64,000 nt of DNA from Fimbriiglobus ruber (lineage in GTDB: Bacteria > Planctomycetota > Planctomycetia > Gemmatales > Gemmataceae). Under the pieces are notes generated by a model, which saw nothing but the letters and a program-made list of their open reading frames with translations, had not been told where the DNA came from and made no database searches. The translations under genes were made by a program, and so were the position numbers. The DNA lies in NCBI RefSeq assembly GCF_002197845.1, contig NZ_NIDE01000001.1:1116001-1180000 (forward strand), in the 5' to 3' direction. This document shows positions 4,340 through 23,770 of this stretch, piece by piece (position 1 is the first letter of the stretch; each line of letters starts with the position of its first letter).

Positions 4340-5644
4340 TTACTTCGTCCCTAACGGCTTGTGCTGTTCGTAAACGCGGACGCGGTCCAAGCCGTCTCGA
4401 CCGAATTTCGCGAAGAAGTCCGGATCTTCCAGTGCCTTCTTTTGCCACTTCACAGCGTCGTCGAACTGTCCGTTCTCGGCGCAAGCGGCTGCCAGTGTGC
4501 AGAGCTTGATGGCATCCTTCCATTCGGTTAATTCGCAAGCTCGTCTGGCGTCGTCAACGGCTTTGACCCCGTTGCGTTGTTTCTCGTCCGGGCAGATCGC
4601 CCACAGCGACGCGCGGTTGTTCAGTGCGACGGCGTCGTTCGGATCGACCCGGATTGCCGAGGTGAAGTCCCCGACCGCCTGCTCGAAGCGTCCGCTTAAA
4701 CTCCAGGCGATGCCCCGGTAGACATACACATTCACGCTCCCGGGGCTGTGTCGGAGGACCGTGGTGTAGTCGTCAATCGCGCGGTCGAACTCTCCCCTCC
4801 GCACCCACACGTGGGCTCGTTTGAAGTACACATGGACGTTGACGGGATCGAGGCGGGCGGCCCGGTTGTAATCCTCGACCGCCTGGTAATGTTCCCCCTG
4901 GTAGTACCAGGCGTCGGCACGGGACTCGTAGAGGTCCGCCCGGTTGGGATCGAGCCGGATCGCCTCGTCGAAATCTTCGATCGCCTGACCGAACGCCTTC
5001 TTTTGGCTCCGTTCGGCCCCGCGGTTGGCGTACGCGGCGACGTAGGTCGGAGACAGGCGGATGGCCTCGGTGTAGTCGGCGATGGCCTTGTCGTGGTCGC
5101 CGATTTCGGCCCAGGCCGCGCCCCTGTTGAAGTGAACCGTCGGGCGGGAAGGATCGAGGCGGATCGCGCGAGTGTAATCCTCCACGGCGAGTTCGTGGGC
5201 CTTCTTGAGTGCCCAGAGATTTCCGCGCTGGAAAAATGCGGGCGCGGAGGTCGGGTCGAGGCGGATCGCTTCGTTGAAATCTTTGAGTGCCGGACCGTAC
5301 TTTTTTTGAGCGGTGTGGGCGACACCACGGAGGACGTACAGGGAGACGTCCGCCGGTCCGGGTTGCGGCTGGAGGGTAAAATAAGCGACCGCGTCTTTCA
5401 ACAACACGAACTCGGACTTCGGGAGCCAGCCTTCTTTCCCGACGGATCGAATCCGGACGAGACCCCCACTATCGGCCAGAACCGTGGCGACGACACAGCG
5501 GGCTTCCTCGGCGGTTGCGGTCCCGTCCGGCGTTACGAAATGGATCCCGAAGCGTTTGGCGATCACGTCCTGCCCGGTCCAGTCCTCGGCCGTCACAATT
5601 GCGGGGAACAGAACGACAAAGACGACAGCCCCGAGGCTTCGCAT
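4340..5644 (-). CDS. Exported TPR-repeat protein with N-terminal SH3-like segment
   Basis: A 434-aa protein with GGAGGAG ahead of the ATG. Residues 1-19 form a Sec signal peptide (VVFVVLFPAIVTA). Residues 20-85 include WTGQDVIAKRFGI and RIRSVGKEGWLPKSEFVLL, which look like a small SH3-type beta barrel. From about residue 95 to 420 there are seven to eight tetratricopeptide repeats, each with the A-x-x-D-x-x-x-AIRLDP signature. TPRs build protein-binding superhelices, so I infer a periplasmic scaffold or assembly factor. It ends 30 bp from the convergent isomerase gene. The partner is unknown. Confidence 0.85.
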   Translation of the reverse strand: MRSLGAVVFVVLFPAIVTAEDWTGQDVIAKRFGIHFVTPDGTATAEEARCVVATVLADSGGLVRIRSVGKEGWLPKSEFVLLKDAVAYFTLQPQPGPADVSLYVLRGVAHTAQKKYGPALKDFNEAIRLDPTSAPAFFQRGNLWALKKAHELAVEDYTRAIRLDPSRPTVHFNRGAAWAEIGDHDKAIADYTEAIRLSPTYVAAYANRGAERSQKKAFGQAIEDFDEAIRLDPNRADLYESRADAWYYQGEHYQAVEDYNRAARLDPVNVHVYFKRAHVWVRRGEFDRAIDDYTTVLRHSPGSVNVYVYRGIAWSLSGRFEQAVGDFTSAIRVDPNDAVALNNRASLWAICPDEKQRNGVKAVDDARRACELTEWKDAIKLCTLAAACAENGQFDDAVKWQKKALEDPDFFAKFGRDGLDRVRVYEQHKPLGTK

Positions 5645-5850: not shown

Positions 5851-7812
5851 TCATGGGCACGGACAAGCCGGCACACAGACCGGCACGTACCGCGTCACGC
5901 ATCGCGTGACTGTGTACGGCTCCATCTGGCAGACCGGCGTTGCGACCATGCAACACGATTGAACGGCTTCGCACCGGGGCACGCACCGAGTCACGTACCG
6001 GCAGTGCTGTTCGGGCACGTACCGCACGGTACATTGGCGGTACGTCTGGCACCGCTCTTCGGGCACCATCCGGCACGTGCGGACGGGGATGTACCGCACG
6101 CATTCCTCGGGCACGCTTTCGCAATACCGCCGGACTTCGCACCGCACGTGATCTTGCTTGACCACCCGGCACGTCGTGTACGGGATGTCGTGGACGACCG
6201 TCTCCGGGACGACCGAACACTGCCGCCGGATTTCGTGCCGCACGTGGTCTTGCTTCTCCATCCGGCACGTCGTGTACGGAATCTGGACCGTCCGCGGCTC
6301 GCACACCGTGTAGCACTGCCGCCGCGTGACCATATGCGTGTGCGTCTCCGGGACGACTTGGCAGGTCGTGTACGGGATCTGGCAGGTGTGAACTTCCGGC
6401 ACCGTGTAGCACCGGTGCTTCGTGACCATCGTCGTGTGGTCCTGCTTGACGACGCGACAGGTCGTGTACGGGATCTGAACCACTTTCTCTTCGGGAACCC
6501 GGTAGCACGACTGGCGGCATTCGTACCGCACCTGGTCTTCTTTGACGACCCGGCAGGTCGTGTAACAGACCGGGACCGATTCGGTGTAAGCCACGGTCCG
6601 GCAGACCGGAATCTGGTACGTCTCCGTCACCGGCTTGCGGACGTAATGCGTCTGGCAGACCGTCTTGTATTCGGTGCGCGGAACGAACACTTGCCGGCAG
6701 ACGGTGCGCCCCGGACACTGGTACTGCTGGGCCATCACCTGGCCGGGGCAGTAGTGGGTCGTGCAGGTGCAGGGGTCGAAGCTGCAGGTGCCGGGGAGCC
6801 GGACGCACTTCGTGACCACCGGTCCAGGAATGTACTCGCTGACCGTTTCGTAGTGCCCGGTCTGGCAGGCGATCACGTGCTGCGTCGTCACGGGTTCGCA
6901 GACGTAGTTCGTCCGACAAGCGGTTTGGTATTCGGTCACGGTCCGGTATCGTGTGACCGGCACGCAGGTCGTGTGCTGATCGTACACGGTCCGGTACGTG
7001 CAGTACGGGATCGCGACCTGGTAGTTCTGTACTTCGGTGCGGTAGGTCGTGTACCGCTGTTCGCGGACGTGCTGTTCGTAGACCGGGTGGTACGTGCTGT
7101 AGCAGACGGGAACCTGATAGGGCTCCACGACCTGCCGGTACGTCGTGTACTGCTGTTCGCGGACGTGCTGCTCGTAGACCCGACGGTATGTCGTGTAGTT
7201 GACCGGAACCTGATAGTCTTGCGCGACGACCCGGCTCACGTTGTACGTGTGTTCGCGGACGTGTTGCTCGTAGACCGGGTGGTACGTCGAATACGGAATC
7301 TCGACGGTGTATTCCTGGACGACCGGGCGGTAGTACGTCCGCGAAACCTGCCGGACGTGCTGCTCGTAGACCGGGTGGTACGTCGAGTACGGGATGCTGA
7401 TCGGAACCTCGCGGACCACCGGGCGGTTCACGACGTACCGCTGTTCTTGCATGTGCGTTTCGTACACCGGCCGGTTCACCGTGTACGTGCGGACGGTGTC
7501 GTTGTACTCGTACACCGGCCGGTTGATGGTGTACGGGACCGCCTCGACGTGCTGGTCGTAGACCGTCCGGTAGCTCGTCCGGACTTCGGGCCGGAGAACC
7601 GTGCGCGTCACCGGCCGGTAGCAAACTTGCGTTTGCATCTCGGACACCGGCTGCATCGCGATCTGTGTCGTGACCACCGGCGCGACGCACTGTTCCGGCG
7701 CGACGCACGGCGCGGGGTAACTACACAGGCCGCAGTGGGACGCCCGGGCGACCCCCGGCCCGTACCAGAGAATCGCGGCGACCAGCAGGCCGAACTTCGG
7801 CAACGTCCTCAT
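5851..7812 (-). CDS. Cys/Tyr/Val/Arg-rich repeat protein, YTV-type planctomycete cell-wall protein
   Basis: A 653-aa exported protein. I take the ATG at 7812 (MRTLPKFGLLVAAILWYG), which has a GGGAGAGGGG just upstream and opens a signal peptide ending near VARA. The mature N-half has about seven units of roughly 33 aa built on Y-x-T-Y-H-P-V-Y-E-Q-H-V-R-E. The C-half has about six units built on IPYTTCRVVKQDHVR followed by CYxVPE. Cys recurs at a fixed phase, suggesting inter-chain disulfides. The composition matches the Cys-rich 'YTV' proteins described from planctomycete cell walls (Rhodopirellula). I infer a structural, cross-linked envelope protein. The repeats leave two other frames open, but only this frame has a signal peptide, a Shine-Dalgarno and regular protein repeats. 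Confidence 0.82.
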   Translation of the reverse strand: MRTLPKFGLLVAAILWYGPGVARASHCGLCSYPAPCVAPEQCVAPVVTTQIAMQPVSEMQTQVCYRPVTRTVLRPEVRTSYRTVYDQHVEAVPYTINRPVYEYNDTVRTYTVNRPVYETHMQEQRYVVNRPVVREVPISIPYSTYHPVYEQHVRQVSRTYYRPVVQEYTVEIPYSTYHPVYEQHVREHTYNVSRVVAQDYQVPVNYTTYRRVYEQHVREQQYTTYRQVVEPYQVPVCYSTYHPVYEQHVREQRYTTYRTEVQNYQVAIPYCTYRTVYDQHTTCVPVTRYRTVTEYQTACRTNYVCEPVTTQHVIACQTGHYETVSEYIPGPVVTKCVRLPGTCSFDPCTCTTHYCPGQVMAQQYQCPGRTVCRQVFVPRTEYKTVCQTHYVRKPVTETYQIPVCRTVAYTESVPVCYTTCRVVKEDQVRYECRQSCYRVPEEKVVQIPYTTCRVVKQDHTTMVTKHRCYTVPEVHTCQIPYTTCQVVPETHTHMVTRRQCYTVCEPRTVQIPYTTCRMEKQDHVRHEIRRQCSVVPETVVHDIPYTTCRVVKQDHVRCEVRRYCESVPEECVRYIPVRTCRMVPEERCQTYRQCTVRYVPEQHCRYVTRCVPRCEAVQSCCMVATPVCQMEPYTVTRCVTRYVPVCVPACPCP

Positions 7813-8221
7813 CCCCTCTCCCCCGCGCACAAGTGCGCTTCGCGACCCCACCCCGGGCACGGACTCCGTCCCCGGCGCCGATCGATTAAATGTGCCTGAC
7901 AAAGTGGCCGTAACCAACGCCCCTTCACGCAAACTGCCTACCTTCCCTCACCCCCGCCTCCTCTCAACCGGCGTATCCGCCCGGACCGGCGAAAGCTGGG
8001 AAAGCCGTTCCGGCTGTGCGACCCGTACCGTCGGGGAATTCCGATTTGCCGATTATTTGCAACCTTCTGCTAACCCGATTGAACAGAACGGCCGGCAGCA
8101 GAGGCATAAAGCGGGCAAACGGGAGATAAGATTGGGATTGGAAGAACCGGCACGTCCGCCGCCGCCACGCGATTCACGCGAACCGACACCGCGCCGCCCG
8201 ATCGCCGATACGATAGTCGTT
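7813..8221. other. Intergenic region, no gene seen
   Basis: About 410 bp between the divergent YTV-type gene and the next plus-strand gene. An open frame continues upstream of 8222 to 7892, but it lacks a ribosome site and conserved-looking sequence. The stretch probably holds the promoters of both genes. I see no clear -35/-10 pair, repeat or RNA. Confidence 0.5.
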
Positions 8222-9091
8222 ATGAATACCGGACCGACCCCCGGGCGCGCGCCCGACCGCGACGAGTGTATCGAGCAGGCCTATTTCTTTCGGACCTTCC
8301 GGGAGCGGCTGATCGACAACATTCCCGCGCAAGAGGTGCTCGACCGCGTCCACGAAGAATTGCTCACGACGACCCGGCTGCCGATGGCCGTCCAGTTCCT
8401 GTCGACCGAACTAAAGCATTCGGGCGTACTCGGGACGGGGTTCGCCCGGCTGTCGCACTATTTCACGCCGTTCCAGGCGTTCGTAGTCGACCAGGCCGAG
8501 GACGCCGGGCAGCGGTTTACGATGCTCGCCGCTCTCCTGGTGTTGGAACGGGAAGCGACCTTCAAAGCGAACTCGCCGACCGAGGCCGGGTTGTTCGTTT
8601 TCCAGTTTGAAACGATCGCCCGCAACCGCCTGGGCTACGACCCGGGTCTCGCGGCTTCCGGCGCGGACCCGTTCTTCGGCCCCGAATGGGCGGCTTACAT
8701 CGATTTGATTCGGCGACAGGTCGGAGCCATCGACTTTTGCGACTTGGTGTACGTCCGGTCGGCTCTGTACGTGGCGGACCACCGGCGGATGGACCCGAAT
8801 TACGAGCCGCCGGTGCCGCCGTTATTCGGGGACAAAGAGGGGAAGATCGCCAAGGCGAGCCGCGGCCGCGACCCGCTGTACTTATTCGCCGCACTCCAGC
8901 GGCAGCTCGGATATCCCGAAGTCCCCAAGCCGAAGCCCCGGGACGACATCACGGCGCAATTCGAGGCGATGCAGGTCCGGGTCCGAGAGTTGGAGGCCCG
9001 GCTCAGAATGGTCGAAGCCGAACAGCGCGGGACGTTCGATCCCACGCAGTTCGGCAAACCGGATTTGTTTCGCGATATTAAGGACGACTGA
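8222..9091 (+). CDS. Conserved hypothetical protein with C-terminal coiled coil
   Basis: A 289-aa soluble protein. I prefer the ATG at 8222 to the upstream in-frame start at 7892, because the protein-like composition begins there (MNTGPTPGRAPDRDECIEQAY). The N-terminal 230 residues are alpha-helical in character (ECIEQAYFFRTFRERL, TMLAALLVLEREATFK). Residues about 250-270 (FEAMQVRVRELEARLRMVEA) form a short coiled coil with regular leucine/valine spacing, so it probably oligomerises. No signal peptide or catalytic motif is visible. I do not recognise the family. The window gives no functional partner. Confidence 0.7.
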   Translation: MNTGPTPGRAPDRDECIEQAYFFRTFRERLIDNIPAQEVLDRVHEELLTTTRLPMAVQFLSTELKHSGVLGTGFARLSHYFTPFQAFVVDQAEDAGQRFTMLAALLVLEREATFKANSPTEAGLFVFQFETIARNRLGYDPGLAASGADPFFGPEWAAYIDLIRRQVGAIDFCDLVYVRSALYVADHRRMDPNYEPPVPPLFGDKEGKIAKASRGRDPLYLFAALQRQLGYPEVPKPKPRDDITAQFEAMQVRVRELEARLRMVEAEQRGTFDPTQFGKPDLFRDIKDD

Positions 9092-21283: not shown

Positions 21284-23770
21284 ATGAAACAACTCTATTC
21301 GACCGGAACGCTGAACGCCGGTTCGGTGACTTTCGGTGCAGTCGGTTACTCGCCGCTCACGACCTCGGCCATGCGGGCCACTTCTGCCGGCGTTGAGGCG
21401 GACGAACTTCAGACCGCCCTTTCTTTTGCGAATTACACTGCGCCACCCTCGAACGGGGAAGCCAACGGTCGTCCGTTGCCGGTCCGGCTCGCGCTGTTGA
21501 ACACCAGTTCGGGCCGGGTGTTGACGCACGTTACGCCGAACGGCGTTTCTTACTTCGCGCACACCCTCCTGAACGTCCCGACCACGGCGGACGCGCAACT
21601 CGCGATTCAAACGTGGGGCAGTCCCCTCTGGCAGAAAAACGAGCCGGACTCAGCCGCAGACCTCCCCGAATTGCCGTATCTCCCGGTCGCGGACGTTCTC
21701 GACGACGACGCCCTCCGTGGCTGGCTCGACACGCCAGCCCGCCGGGATCTGCTCGAATTCGCGCTGACCGCGCTCCTCGGCACCAGCCCGACGACGCGCA
21801 TCATCCTGGCGGCGGCCGCTGACGATGTGGCCAAGGTGGTATACGCCGTCACCCGTGCGCTGCCGCAAGGGCTACTCGACGACTTCACGTTCTCCACTTA
21901 TGAGGCAGAGCCGCTGGCTTGCACCGCCCGGCTCATCGGGCACGATACCGGGTCCGTCGACCGCGACCTGCCTGCCGAATGCTACTCCGGCATCGGGACG
22001 GTCGGCTTCAATCCGGCCACCGGCCGGCGGACGGAAATCCCAACCGACGTTCCGTTCGCCGCGTTCGCCGTCGCGGCGCTCGCCACCGGGGAATACGGGC
22101 CGCTCGATGAAGTTAAAGGCCAGTGGCAGCGGCTGGGCCTGAAAGAGCCCCGGCAGTTCGACCTCGTTTACCGCCTGGCCCGCGGTACCGGCGTACTCAA
22201 CAAAGAAGAAGCCGCCGCGGCGCTACAGCACCCGCCACTCGCCGCGTGGATCTCGACCCGCGCGGACGCCTTGAACCAGTTCCTGGAATGGGCTCTGGAA
22301 GACCGCGGATTCGCCAACACGTCGTTCACGCGGGCCGTTCAGGCGCTGCGGCAAAAGCCGGACGTGATTGGGAAACTCGGTCAGACGGTCAAGGATCTCG
22401 GGCTGAAAGCTCTTCGGGCGGGGGACAAGACCCGAACCGCCAACGCGCTAGAAGTCATCCTGCCGATGGCCGCGCCGTCCAAGGCGAACGCGGTCTGGGG
22501 CGAACTCATCACCCAACTCACCACCCCGGACAGCCTGTCGTGGGACATGCGGTGGTATCTGCTCCCGAAGTTCGTACGCTTCAAGCAACAACAGGGTACC
22601 ACCGGCGTCGACCCCGCGTTGGCGAAATGGCTGGACGTGCCGGCCGAGCATTTGACCGAAATTCTCGCGCTTGAGTTGCCCCGTGCCTACCACATCGCCG
22701 CCGGCCGCGCCTGCCTGGGCCGCGACGGGGAGCCGTCGGCTGTACTCACGAAGACGCTGGCCCAACACTCGACGCTGGCGCTGACACTGCTCCAGCCCGC
22801 GCCGACCGACGCGGACGCCCTCCGCCAGGTCAAGCTGTTCGACTCGTTGCTGGCCGAGGCCCCCGCCCACCCTTGGTTCGAGGACTTGCTCGCCCGGGCG
22901 ACCGACTACCCGGCCGTCCTGTTGAACAAGTTCTTTGAGGCGACGCTGACTGCCGGCAAGGTCGACGCCGATCGGGTGATCCGAACCCAGGGTCCGCGTC
23001 TTCTGGAATTGTTTACCGGGCAAACCGGCCTGGACCGGGTCGGCACCCAGTTCCTGGCCAACCCGCCGGCCGATTTACTGCGAAACCCTGGACTACTCGC
23101 CTTTTTAGACAAACTTCGCGACGAACCGCGTGTCGGTGATGAACTGAAAGGGCGGGTCGCGGCGGTCAAAGCCGTTCGCGCGTACCTCGATGCTCCCGCG
23201 TTCACCGCCGACGCGATGAAGCCGGCGGCCGACGCCCTCGTTTTGACCCCGCCGGTCGTGCCGCCGGGAACGAAGCACGAGGTGTTCTCTGCCGTGGCGA
23301 CCGCGTTGCTGAGCCGCGCGAACGCGGACACCCTGCAAACGGATCTGGAAGCCGCGCTCGTGTCTTTCGGTTCCGCGCTGGCGAACGACCCGTCCGACTT
23401 GTACGAAAACCTGCTCCGCGACCTACGTAGCCGGACCGAATTCTCCAGGCAAACGAACCTCGTCCACACGTTCCTCGCCGTCGCACTCGGTGCGGCCAAG
23501 GCGCCGGAATTGGTCGGTAAGCTCGACGGGTTGGACGGCCACGCGTTCGCGATCGCGGCCGAAGCGGCGAAGCGGGGCGGGAACCGCGTTCTCGGCGAGA
23601 TCGACCGCCGGAGCGAGGCGTGGCCGAAAGCCGCGCGGACGCAATGGGGATTCTTGCTCGCCGCCGTCCGCCCGCGGGGCGCGCGAGGCGTACTCCGCGA
23701 TGCGGCTCTAATTCTTGGCGGTGCTGGGGCCGCGACCGTGGTGTGGTGGGTGGTCAAGTTGGTTGGGTAA
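21284..23770 (+). CDS. Large protein resembling GTPase-associated protein 1 (GAP1-like), C-terminal membrane anchor
   Basis: An 828-aa protein. The ATG at 21284 has GAGGT upstream; the longer frame back to 21194 is unsupported. The N-terminal 100 residues (LYSTGTLNAGSVTFGAVGYS, then RVLTHVTPNGVSYFAHTLLN) and the block LPQGLLDDFTFSTYEAEP recall the GAP1-N2 and GAP1-M domains of GTPase-associated (GAS-type) conflict-system proteins. The middle (300-700) is helical and repeat-like. The last 25 residues are one hydrophobic segment (ILGGAGAATVVWWVVKLVG), so it is probably tail-anchored. No GTPase or effector gene lies beside it. The family link is from recalled motifs and is tentative. The frame itself is solid. 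Confidence 0.72.
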   Translation: MKQLYSTGTLNAGSVTFGAVGYSPLTTSAMRATSAGVEADELQTALSFANYTAPPSNGEANGRPLPVRLALLNTSSGRVLTHVTPNGVSYFAHTLLNVPTTADAQLAIQTWGSPLWQKNEPDSAADLPELPYLPVADVLDDDALRGWLDTPARRDLLEFALTALLGTSPTTRIILAAAADDVAKVVYAVTRALPQGLLDDFTFSTYEAEPLACTARLIGHDTGSVDRDLPAECYSGIGTVGFNPATGRRTEIPTDVPFAAFAVAALATGEYGPLDEVKGQWQRLGLKEPRQFDLVYRLARGTGVLNKEEAAAALQHPPLAAWISTRADALNQFLEWALEDRGFANTSFTRAVQALRQKPDVIGKLGQTVKDLGLKALRAGDKTRTANALEVILPMAAPSKANAVWGELITQLTTPDSLSWDMRWYLLPKFVRFKQQQGTTGVDPALAKWLDVPAEHLTEILALELPRAYHIAAGRACLGRDGEPSAVLTKTLAQHSTLALTLLQPAPTDADALRQVKLFDSLLAEAPAHPWFEDLLARATDYPAVLLNKFFEATLTAGKVDADRVIRTQGPRLLELFTGQTGLDRVGTQFLANPPADLLRNPGLLAFLDKLRDEPRVGDELKGRVAAVKAVRAYLDAPAFTADAMKPAADALVLTPPVVPPGTKHEVFSAVATALLSRANADTLQTDLEAALVSFGSALANDPSDLYENLLRDLRSRTEFSRQTNLVHTFLAVALGAAKAPELVGKLDGLDGHAFAIAAEAAKRGGNRVLGEIDRRSEAWPKAARTQWGFLLAAVRPRGARGVLRDAALILGGAGAATVVWWVVKLVG

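What the first reader, a model, noticed from the sequence alone, without database searches (positions are those of the whole stretch)
5851..7812. YTV-type cysteine-repeat wall protein with two distinct repeat families
The protein has two zones of about 33-aa repeats, one Tyr/His-rich (Y-H-P-V-Y-E-Q-H-V-R-E) with few Cys and one Cys-rich (IPYTTCRVVKQDH). Regularly spaced Cys and Tyr suggest disulfide or dityrosine cross-links in a peptidoglycan-poor wall. The two-zone layout within one chain is worth describing.
Basis: partly seen in the sequence, partly recalled or inferred. Interest (0 to 1): 0.58.

Follow-up and report, generated by a model that had tools for sequence, protein, structure and literature searches.

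The report
Giant beta-hairpin planctomycete wall protein
This gene encodes a known type of cell-wall protein of planctomycete bacteria, and comparing it across many species indicates that the whole chain folds back on itself as one enormous hairpin whose cysteines are kept apart inside the molecule, apparently so that they can tie neighbouring molecules into a wall without peptidoglycan.

Summary
The gene is real: minus strand 5851-7812, 653 aa, Pfam YTV (PF07639), the family of SDS-resistant planctomycete wall proteins. The period is exactly 32 aa (two 16-aa halves), not 33. The two zones are not two repeat families: they share one register, with Tyr in zone 1 where zone 2 has Cys every 16 residues, twelve in a row.

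The main result goes further. Across 65 homologs, zone 1 and zone 2 covary residue by residue along one antiparallel line, i+j=697 (z 10.3; maximum elsewhere 2.8), the mirror line of a low-confidence AlphaFold2 model. Arm lengths mostly change together in 32-aa units (13 of 17 homologs with changes). The same signature recurs in a paralog family and in another family of the class. The chain is most likely one giant beta-hairpin of about 280 residue pairs turning at a conserved DPCTC tip. Cysteines facing each other across the arms are avoided (7 seen, 63 expected), so disulfides are more likely intermolecular. The genome shows no MurA above cut-off and no PF00905 transpeptidase. Hairpin versus antiparallel dimer, location and disulfides are not shown; dityrosine was not testable.

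The parts
5851..7812 (-). YTV wall-protein gene, 653 aa, ATG at 7812, stop at 5851-5853
   Evidence: homologs
7813..7824 (-). purine-rich stretch before the start codon, possible ribosome-binding site
   Evidence: read; not tested
7738..7812 (-). N-terminus aa 1-25 that reads as a Sec signal peptide (hydrophobic core, then ARA before SHCG)
   Evidence: read; no predictor run
6829..7668 (-). arm 1 (zone 1), aa 49-328: Tyr-rich, Cys-poor 16/32-aa repeats
   Evidence: arm-arm covariation
6709..6828 (-). tip region aa 329-368 with PG pairs placed symmetrically (329/330 with 367/368; 340/341 with 356/357)
6763..6777 (-). DPCTC, aa 346-350, conserved (D 0.98, P 0.98, C 0.97, T 0.84, C 0.98 of 65), proposed turn; centre of i+j=697 is 348.5
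   Evidence: (low-confidence model)
5869..6708 (-). arm 2 (zone 2), aa 369-648: Cys-rich 16/32-aa repeats
   Evidence: arm-arm covariation
6073..6603 (-). Cys ladder, aa 404 to 580, one Cys every 16 residues, 12 in a row

Best explanation
A secreted YTV-family structural wall protein of a planctomycete that lacks key peptidoglycan genes. The mature chain folds as one giant antiparallel beta-hairpin: arm 1 (aa about 49-328) pairs residue by residue with arm 2 (aa about 369-648) in the register i+j=697 and turns at the conserved DPCTC tip. Arm 1 carries mostly Tyr, and arm 2 Cys, at the same place of the 16-residue repeat. Cysteines are kept from facing each other across the arms, so a ladder of one Cys per 16 residues stays free to link neighbouring ribbons by disulfides into an SDS-resistant fabric. 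Shown here by sequence: the repeat, the ladder, the antiparallel arm-arm covariation, the mostly matched arm lengths, the Cys-Cys avoidance, no MurA above cut-off and no PF00905 match. Inferred: that the pairing is within one chain, the wall location (from relatives), disulfide formation, and the fabric.
For: Covariation (APC-corrected mutual information) of 65 homologs peaks at i+j=697 (z 10.3) with 695 and 699 (6.2, 6.8), maximum elsewhere 2.8; one protein per genus (32): 6.4; without length changes (47): 15.7; arms shuffled between species, three runs: no peak. 15 of the top 20 pairs more than 40 apart lie on sums 694-700, background 1.06%. Strand boundaries of the AlphaFold2 model mirror each other exactly about the same line, 647 in mature numbering. 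Arm lengths: 17 of 64 homologs changed by more than one residue, 13 equally in both arms; 60 of 64 equal against a permutation mean of 37.7 and maximum of 50. Facing pairs: opposite charges 885 against 682, like charges 38 against 126, Cys-Cys 7 against 63, each outside all 2,000 permutations. Same signature in type B paralogs (70 proteins) and in another family of the class (70 proteins, sum 491, robust z 16.5, Cys-Cys 51 against 152). Not a nucleic-acid hairpin. No MurA above cut-off, no PF00905. Wall location of relatives: PMC5287468, PMC8567305 (passages).
Against: The model has pLDDT 54 and pTM 0.20, and arm 2 alone gives no fold at all (pLDDT 27). 4 of 17 homologs with length changes have unequal arms. 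Segment aa 201-250 shows no peak at 697 (z 1.5). A scan of single sequences by charge and Cys found the tip centre exactly in only 1 of 60. The same covariation would arise from an antiparallel dimer. No VKOR or DsbB match was found, so an oxidising pathway is not identified. Repeats are partly alike within a species (best cross-species match is the same unit in 183 of 300 zone-1 and 113 of 250 zone-2 comparisons), so part of the ladder's conservation may come from copying between units.
Confidence: 0.72

Rival explanations
1. Trans version: two chains lie antiparallel, arm 1 of one pairing with arm 2 of the other and crossing at residue 348.5, with no turn. The contacts and the wall role would be the same.
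For: The covariation cannot tell it from a hairpin.
Against: The centre falls on a conserved D-P-C-T-C with PG pairs placed symmetrically on both sides, which looks like a turn; the low-confidence model of one chain turns there.
Confidence: 0.15
2. Beta-solenoid: each 16 or 32 residues make one coil, and Tyr and Cys form stacked ladders.
For: Exact period and length changes in whole 32-aa units.
Against: The arm-to-arm antiparallel line holds the strongest long-range signal; the lag-32 signal within an arm is weaker (z 5.2 and 4.1) and is also expected from repeat copying.
Confidence: 0.04
3. The cysteines bind metal or stay reduced for a redox role, and do not cross-link.
For: No VKOR or DsbB match in the genome; facing Cys-Cys pairs avoided.
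Against: Ladder Cys are 16 residues apart, not in close metal-site spacing. Walls of relatives survive boiling in 10% SDS (PMC5287468, passage), and a protein sacculus with disulfide bonds is stated in PMC2754498 (passage).
Confidence: 0.06
4. One reading: two different repeat families in one chain, with Tyr zone and Cys zone as separate cross-linking blocks (dityrosine and disulfide).
For: The zones do differ in composition: Cys 3.9% against 11.3%, Tyr 13.1% against 6.0%, means of 65 proteins.
Against: The zones align in one register and covary with each other. No data bear on dityrosine.
Confidence: 0.03

Closest known systems
YTV family, Pfam PF07639 (planctomycete wall proteins; Gemmata obscuriglobus, Tuwongella immobilis, Planctopirus limnophila)
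   Same: Member by Pfam score (43.9 bits, cut-off 21); Cys-rich; relatives are found in SDS-resistant walls (passages).
   Different: In the passages and listings I saw, no paper describes the 16/32-residue register, the arm-to-arm pairing or the avoided Cys pairs. PMC8078820 lists YTV without a template (one table row seen).
Type B YTV paralog of this genome (P0002, contig C14)
   Same: Same 16-residue repeat, central DPCTC, antiparallel arm covariation.
   Different: Cys on arm 1 instead of arm 2 (30 of 30 against 0 of 65); pairing in two blocks shifted by 45 residues.
Cys-rich outer-envelope proteins of Chlamydiae (recalled, not compared here)
   Same: Works alike in outline: a disulfide-linked protein shell in bacteria with little peptidoglycan (recalled).
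   Different: No sequence relation was tested.

Membership tests
YTV (PF07639) | Pfam gathering score | tested here: met
   43.9 bits against 21, four stretches
YTV (PF07639) | found in the class Planctomycetia, not in distant bacteria | tested here: met
   Profile A1 matched 118 of 118 genomes of the class; PF07639 matched 14 of 199 genomes of a phylum sample, 12 of the class (own included) and 2 weak ones outside it (E 4.7e-5 and 7.8e-4), and 0 of 14 control genomes
YTV (PF07639) | Cys-rich | tested here: met
   49 Cys in 653 aa, 7.5%
YTV (PF07639) | export signal | tested here: inconclusive
   N-terminus reads as a signal peptide; no predictor was available
YTV (PF07639) | present in SDS-resistant cell walls | not testable with these tools
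   Known for relatives only (PMC5287468, PMC8567305, passages)
Peptidoglycan-lacking wall (setting) | no MurA, no penicillin-binding transpeptidase | tested here: met
   MurA model 51 bits against a cut-off of 392.7; PF00905 0 matches; one Mur_ligase_M protein, 460-aa frame, possibly folC (name recalled). Genome 97% complete
Giant antiparallel hairpin (proposed here) | residues i and 697-i covary | tested here: met
Giant antiparallel hairpin (proposed here) | arm lengths change together | tested here: met
   13 of 17 homologs with changes, 12 of 15 genera; 4 homologs in 3 genera against
Giant antiparallel hairpin (proposed here) | both arms pair within one chain with a turn at the tip | tested here: inconclusive
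   low-confidence model and symmetric tip sequence
Beta-solenoid | contacts mainly between neighbouring repeats of one arm | tested here: not met
   the strongest long-range pairs lie on the arm-to-arm line (15 of top 20)

The most novel reading that the evidence does not exclude
The wall of these bacteria is woven from two complementary kinds of giant beta-hairpin ribbon, up to about 90 nm long if fully extended. Type A (this gene) carries its cysteine ladder on arm 2 and type B on arm 1. Selection keeps cysteines from meeting inside a hairpin, so disulfides join different ribbons, A to B through their Cys-rich arms. The 16-residue period would be one full twist of the ribbon, setting out one cross-link per turn.
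Probability: 0.3. Interest if true: 0.92.

Novelty: new variant of a known kind. Interest (0 to 1): 0.82.

Why it matters
How planctomycetes without classical peptidoglycan genes keep a rigid wall is a long-standing question. YTV proteins are its known main constituents in relatives, but the one modelling paper found lists the family without a template (PMC8078820, one table row seen). A giant hairpin with a defined register, tip and cross-link pattern turns the question into concrete tests: named residue pairs, no disulfide between facing positions, matched arm lengths. A two-stranded pairing of about 280 residues would also be an unusually long beta structure (judgement from recall; no survey was made).

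Tried and rejected
Arm 2 alone by AlphaFold2: no fold, pLDDT 27. PDB by profile: 0 matches. Foldseek with the low-confidence model: 36 matches, 0 at E <= 0.001, not used. NCBIfam: 0 families. Viral contigs: no relative in two scans. A 50-row alignment of shifted 128-residue windows spread over 228 columns and was dropped. Locating the hairpin centre from one sequence at a time by charge and Cys patterns failed: exact in 1 of 60 type A proteins, off by +2 in 7 of 60, elsewhere in the rest; I think because the repeat makes many registers alike. RNA or DNA hairpin as cause of the antiparallel signal: rejected, base complementarity at that register is 0.232 against a mean of 0.264. Literal two-family reading: rejected. 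Beta-solenoid: disfavoured.

Selection of rows. Type A alignment: this protein and 64 homologs, of 91 genomes with a match (own included). Left out: the frameshifted copy L050, the loci L073 and L085 of another type, this genome's paralogs, and genomes not fetched (fragments, weak matches, but also full-length ones such as G012, G020 and G023). Class-wide arm lengths: 14 of 40 fetched proteins used; 26 dropped for no single tip motif, no recognised start or a contig end. The tip-motif count lost 15 of 65 type A and 14 of 30 type B proteins and was replaced by the alignment-based count (65 and 30, none lost). In one search homolog L069 has a gap at the tip, so its 25/24 is counted as equal with that reservation. 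Loci named-93 of the locus list (L087-L093) are named copies of genomes already used, so they were not added to the 64.

Full report
What is there. The gene lies on the minus strand at exactly 5851-7812: 653 aa, ATG at 7812, a purine-rich stretch before it, an N-terminus that reads as a signal peptide, 49 Cys and 64 Tyr. Pfam gives YTV, PF07639, E 2.5e-11 with four stretches. The genome (12.36 Mb, 20 contigs, 97% complete) has YTV matches in three genes. Matches to the protein, some of them fragments or weak, occur in 91 of 95 genomes of the family. Named relatives are Limnoglobus roseus and MAGs labelled Gemmataceae (2), Fimbriiglobus (2), Planctomycetota (1) and, surely by mislabelling, Bacteroidales (1), so the organism is a Gemmataceae-type planctomycete.

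The repeat. The period is 32 residues with a 16-residue half (z 20.4 and 13.9). In zone 2 a Cys stands at 404+16k twelve times in a row; 12 of 18 zone-2 Cys share one phase (0 of 100,000 random placements). These ladder positions are Cys in 92% of homologs on average (one of them, 564, in only 47%), the other six zone-2 Cys in 16%. Zone 1 and zone 2 align in one register, mostly Tyr at the place of the ladder Cys. The 'two repeat families' are one repeat in two flavours. A caution: units of one species are partly alike (the best cross-species match is the same unit in 183 of 300 zone-1 and 113 of 250 zone-2 comparisons), so copying between units may help to keep the ladder.

The two zones are two arms. 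AlphaFold2 on the mature chain with seven relatives gave a low-confidence model (pLDDT 54, pTM 0.20). I saw its strand boundaries, not its coordinates. They mirror each other exactly: 24-96 with 551-623, 105-227 with 420-542, 230-303 with 344-417, and two short pairs nearer the tip, all with sums of 647 in mature numbering, which is 697 in precursor numbering; the turn falls on residues 347-350 of DPCTC. I tested this independently. In 64 homologs, 36 of 38 length events in the repeat region are whole multiples of 32 residues (two of them split 2+30 by the aligner and counted as one each); the other two are 1 and 15 residues. Lengths match between the arms: 17 homologs changed by more than one residue, 13 equally in both arms, 4 not; by genus 12 of 15. 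60 of 64 are equal against a permutation mean of 37.7 and a maximum of 50. Covariation in the 65 proteins peaks at i+j=697, flanked by 695 and 699, the pattern of antiparallel strands (z 10.3, 6.2, 6.8; maximum elsewhere 2.8). It stays with one protein per genus (32 proteins, 6.4), is stronger without length changes (47 proteins, 15.7) and vanishes in three runs with arms shuffled between species. Of the top 20 pairs more than 40 apart, 15 lie on sums 694-700 (background 1.06%). Of six segments along the arm, four peak at 697, one (301-328) at 695, and one (201-250, where units were lost in several species) does not (z 1.5). Opposite charges face each other more often (885 against 682) and like charges less often (38 against 126) than in any of 2,000 permutations. 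Base complementarity at that register is not raised, so this is not a nucleic-acid hairpin.

Replication. The paralog on contig C14 and its relatives (type B, 70 proteins) show the same signature in two blocks, sums 599 and 644; the shift of 45 I read as a stretch inserted in arm 2. Their charge signal is strongest two residues off, at 601 and 646. YTV proteins of another, unnamed family of the class (70 proteins) peak at a single sum, 491, robust z 16.5, flanked by 489 and 493; 18 of the top 20 pairs lie on these three sums, centred in the same kind of tip sequence. In the 14 usable of 40 proteins fetched class-wide, the two arms correlate in length (Pearson 0.93, Spearman 0.71, mean ratio 0.98, sd 0.10). 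A scan of single sequences could not locate the centre (exact in 1 of 60).

What the cysteines do. Facing Cys-Cys pairs are avoided: 7 against 63 expected in type A, 5 against 45 and 5 against 52 in the two blocks of type B, 51 against 152 in the other family. The expectation uses the frequency at each position, so it is not a by-product of where Cys is common. Cys thus avoid pairing between facing positions of the arms, and links between molecules are the likely use (inference). Type A has its Cys on arm 2 in 65 of 65 proteins and type B on arm 1 in 30 of 30; Tyr is denser in arm 1 in both types. At E <= 1e-20, 84 of 95 genomes have a type A match, 73 a type B match and 66 both (counted by hand from the tables). 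Some nearly complete genomes show no B at that level, which speaks against a strict A-B pair. The third paralog has 0 Cys in its first and 20 in its second zone.

Setting. The genome has no MurA above cut-off (51 against 392.7 bits), no PF00905 match and one protein with a Mur-ligase middle domain. VKOR and DsbB were not found; DsbA-like proteins were not searched, so how disulfides would be made is open. Of the literature I saw passages, not whole papers. PMC5287468: YTV proteins are the major constituents of walls of Gemmata obscuriglobus boiled in 10% SDS. PMC8567305: the two Cys-rich YTV proteins that scored highest in wall preparations of Tuwongella immobilis were found only in the SDS fraction. 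PMC10632474: a YTV protein is among the essential genes of Planctopirus limnophila, a role in rigidity being suggested from its Cys. PMC2754498: a protein sacculus with disulfide bonds. PMC8078820: YTV in a table without a template; 'hairpin' does not occur in its main text. The paper on envelope evolution by Mahajan and others was not held, nor were older subscription papers available, so 'not described' rests on searches only. Search 98, for very long hairpins, listed one phage tail-fibre paper (PMC10579305), of which I saw only the listing.

Mechanism and limits. I judge that each YTV chain is a hairpin ribbon about 280 residue pairs long (about 92 nm at 0.33 nm per residue if straight; inference), turned at DPCTC, presenting one Cys per 16 residues for links to neighbours. 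That 16 residues equal one full twist of a two-stranded ribbon is inference from recalled values. Covariation cannot by itself separate a hairpin from an antiparallel pair of chains. No structure, disulfide or location was measured for this protein. Only mutual information was used, on alignments of 65 to 70 proteins (effective numbers 50, 48 and 43).

Noticed in passing
window 8201-9091 (+): Divergently transcribed neighbour (about 296 aa) without a Pfam match, yet conserved beside the wall gene at 62-71% identity in 5 of the 7 named loci (L087, L088, L089, L091, L092).
   Followed up: partly
window 4340-5644 (-): TPR-repeat protein directly downstream on the same strand.
   Followed up: no
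window 21974-22070 (+): tRNA-SeC gene, anticodon TCA, the only tRNA found in the window; suggests selenoprotein synthesis.
   Followed up: no
L092 (JAIXLE010000025.1): MAG contig labelled Bacteroidales carries this planctomycete wall gene, split into two frames; likely mis-binned or mislabelled.
   Followed up: no
type B matches of G022, G046, G087, G089: Matches to type B genes run across one or two in-frame stop codons; whether these are real breaks, assembly errors or alignment over the gene's end was not examined.
   Followed up: no
genera g4, g10, g35 (L065, L060, L070, L074): Four type A homologs with unequal arm lengths (differences of 32 or 96 aa); they would need a bulge, an overhang or an assembly error.
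   Followed up: no
G000:C2:273000-275500 (L067): Third YTV gene of the genome (466 aa): zone 1 without Cys, zone 2 with 20 Cys, 16-residue period.
   Followed up: partly
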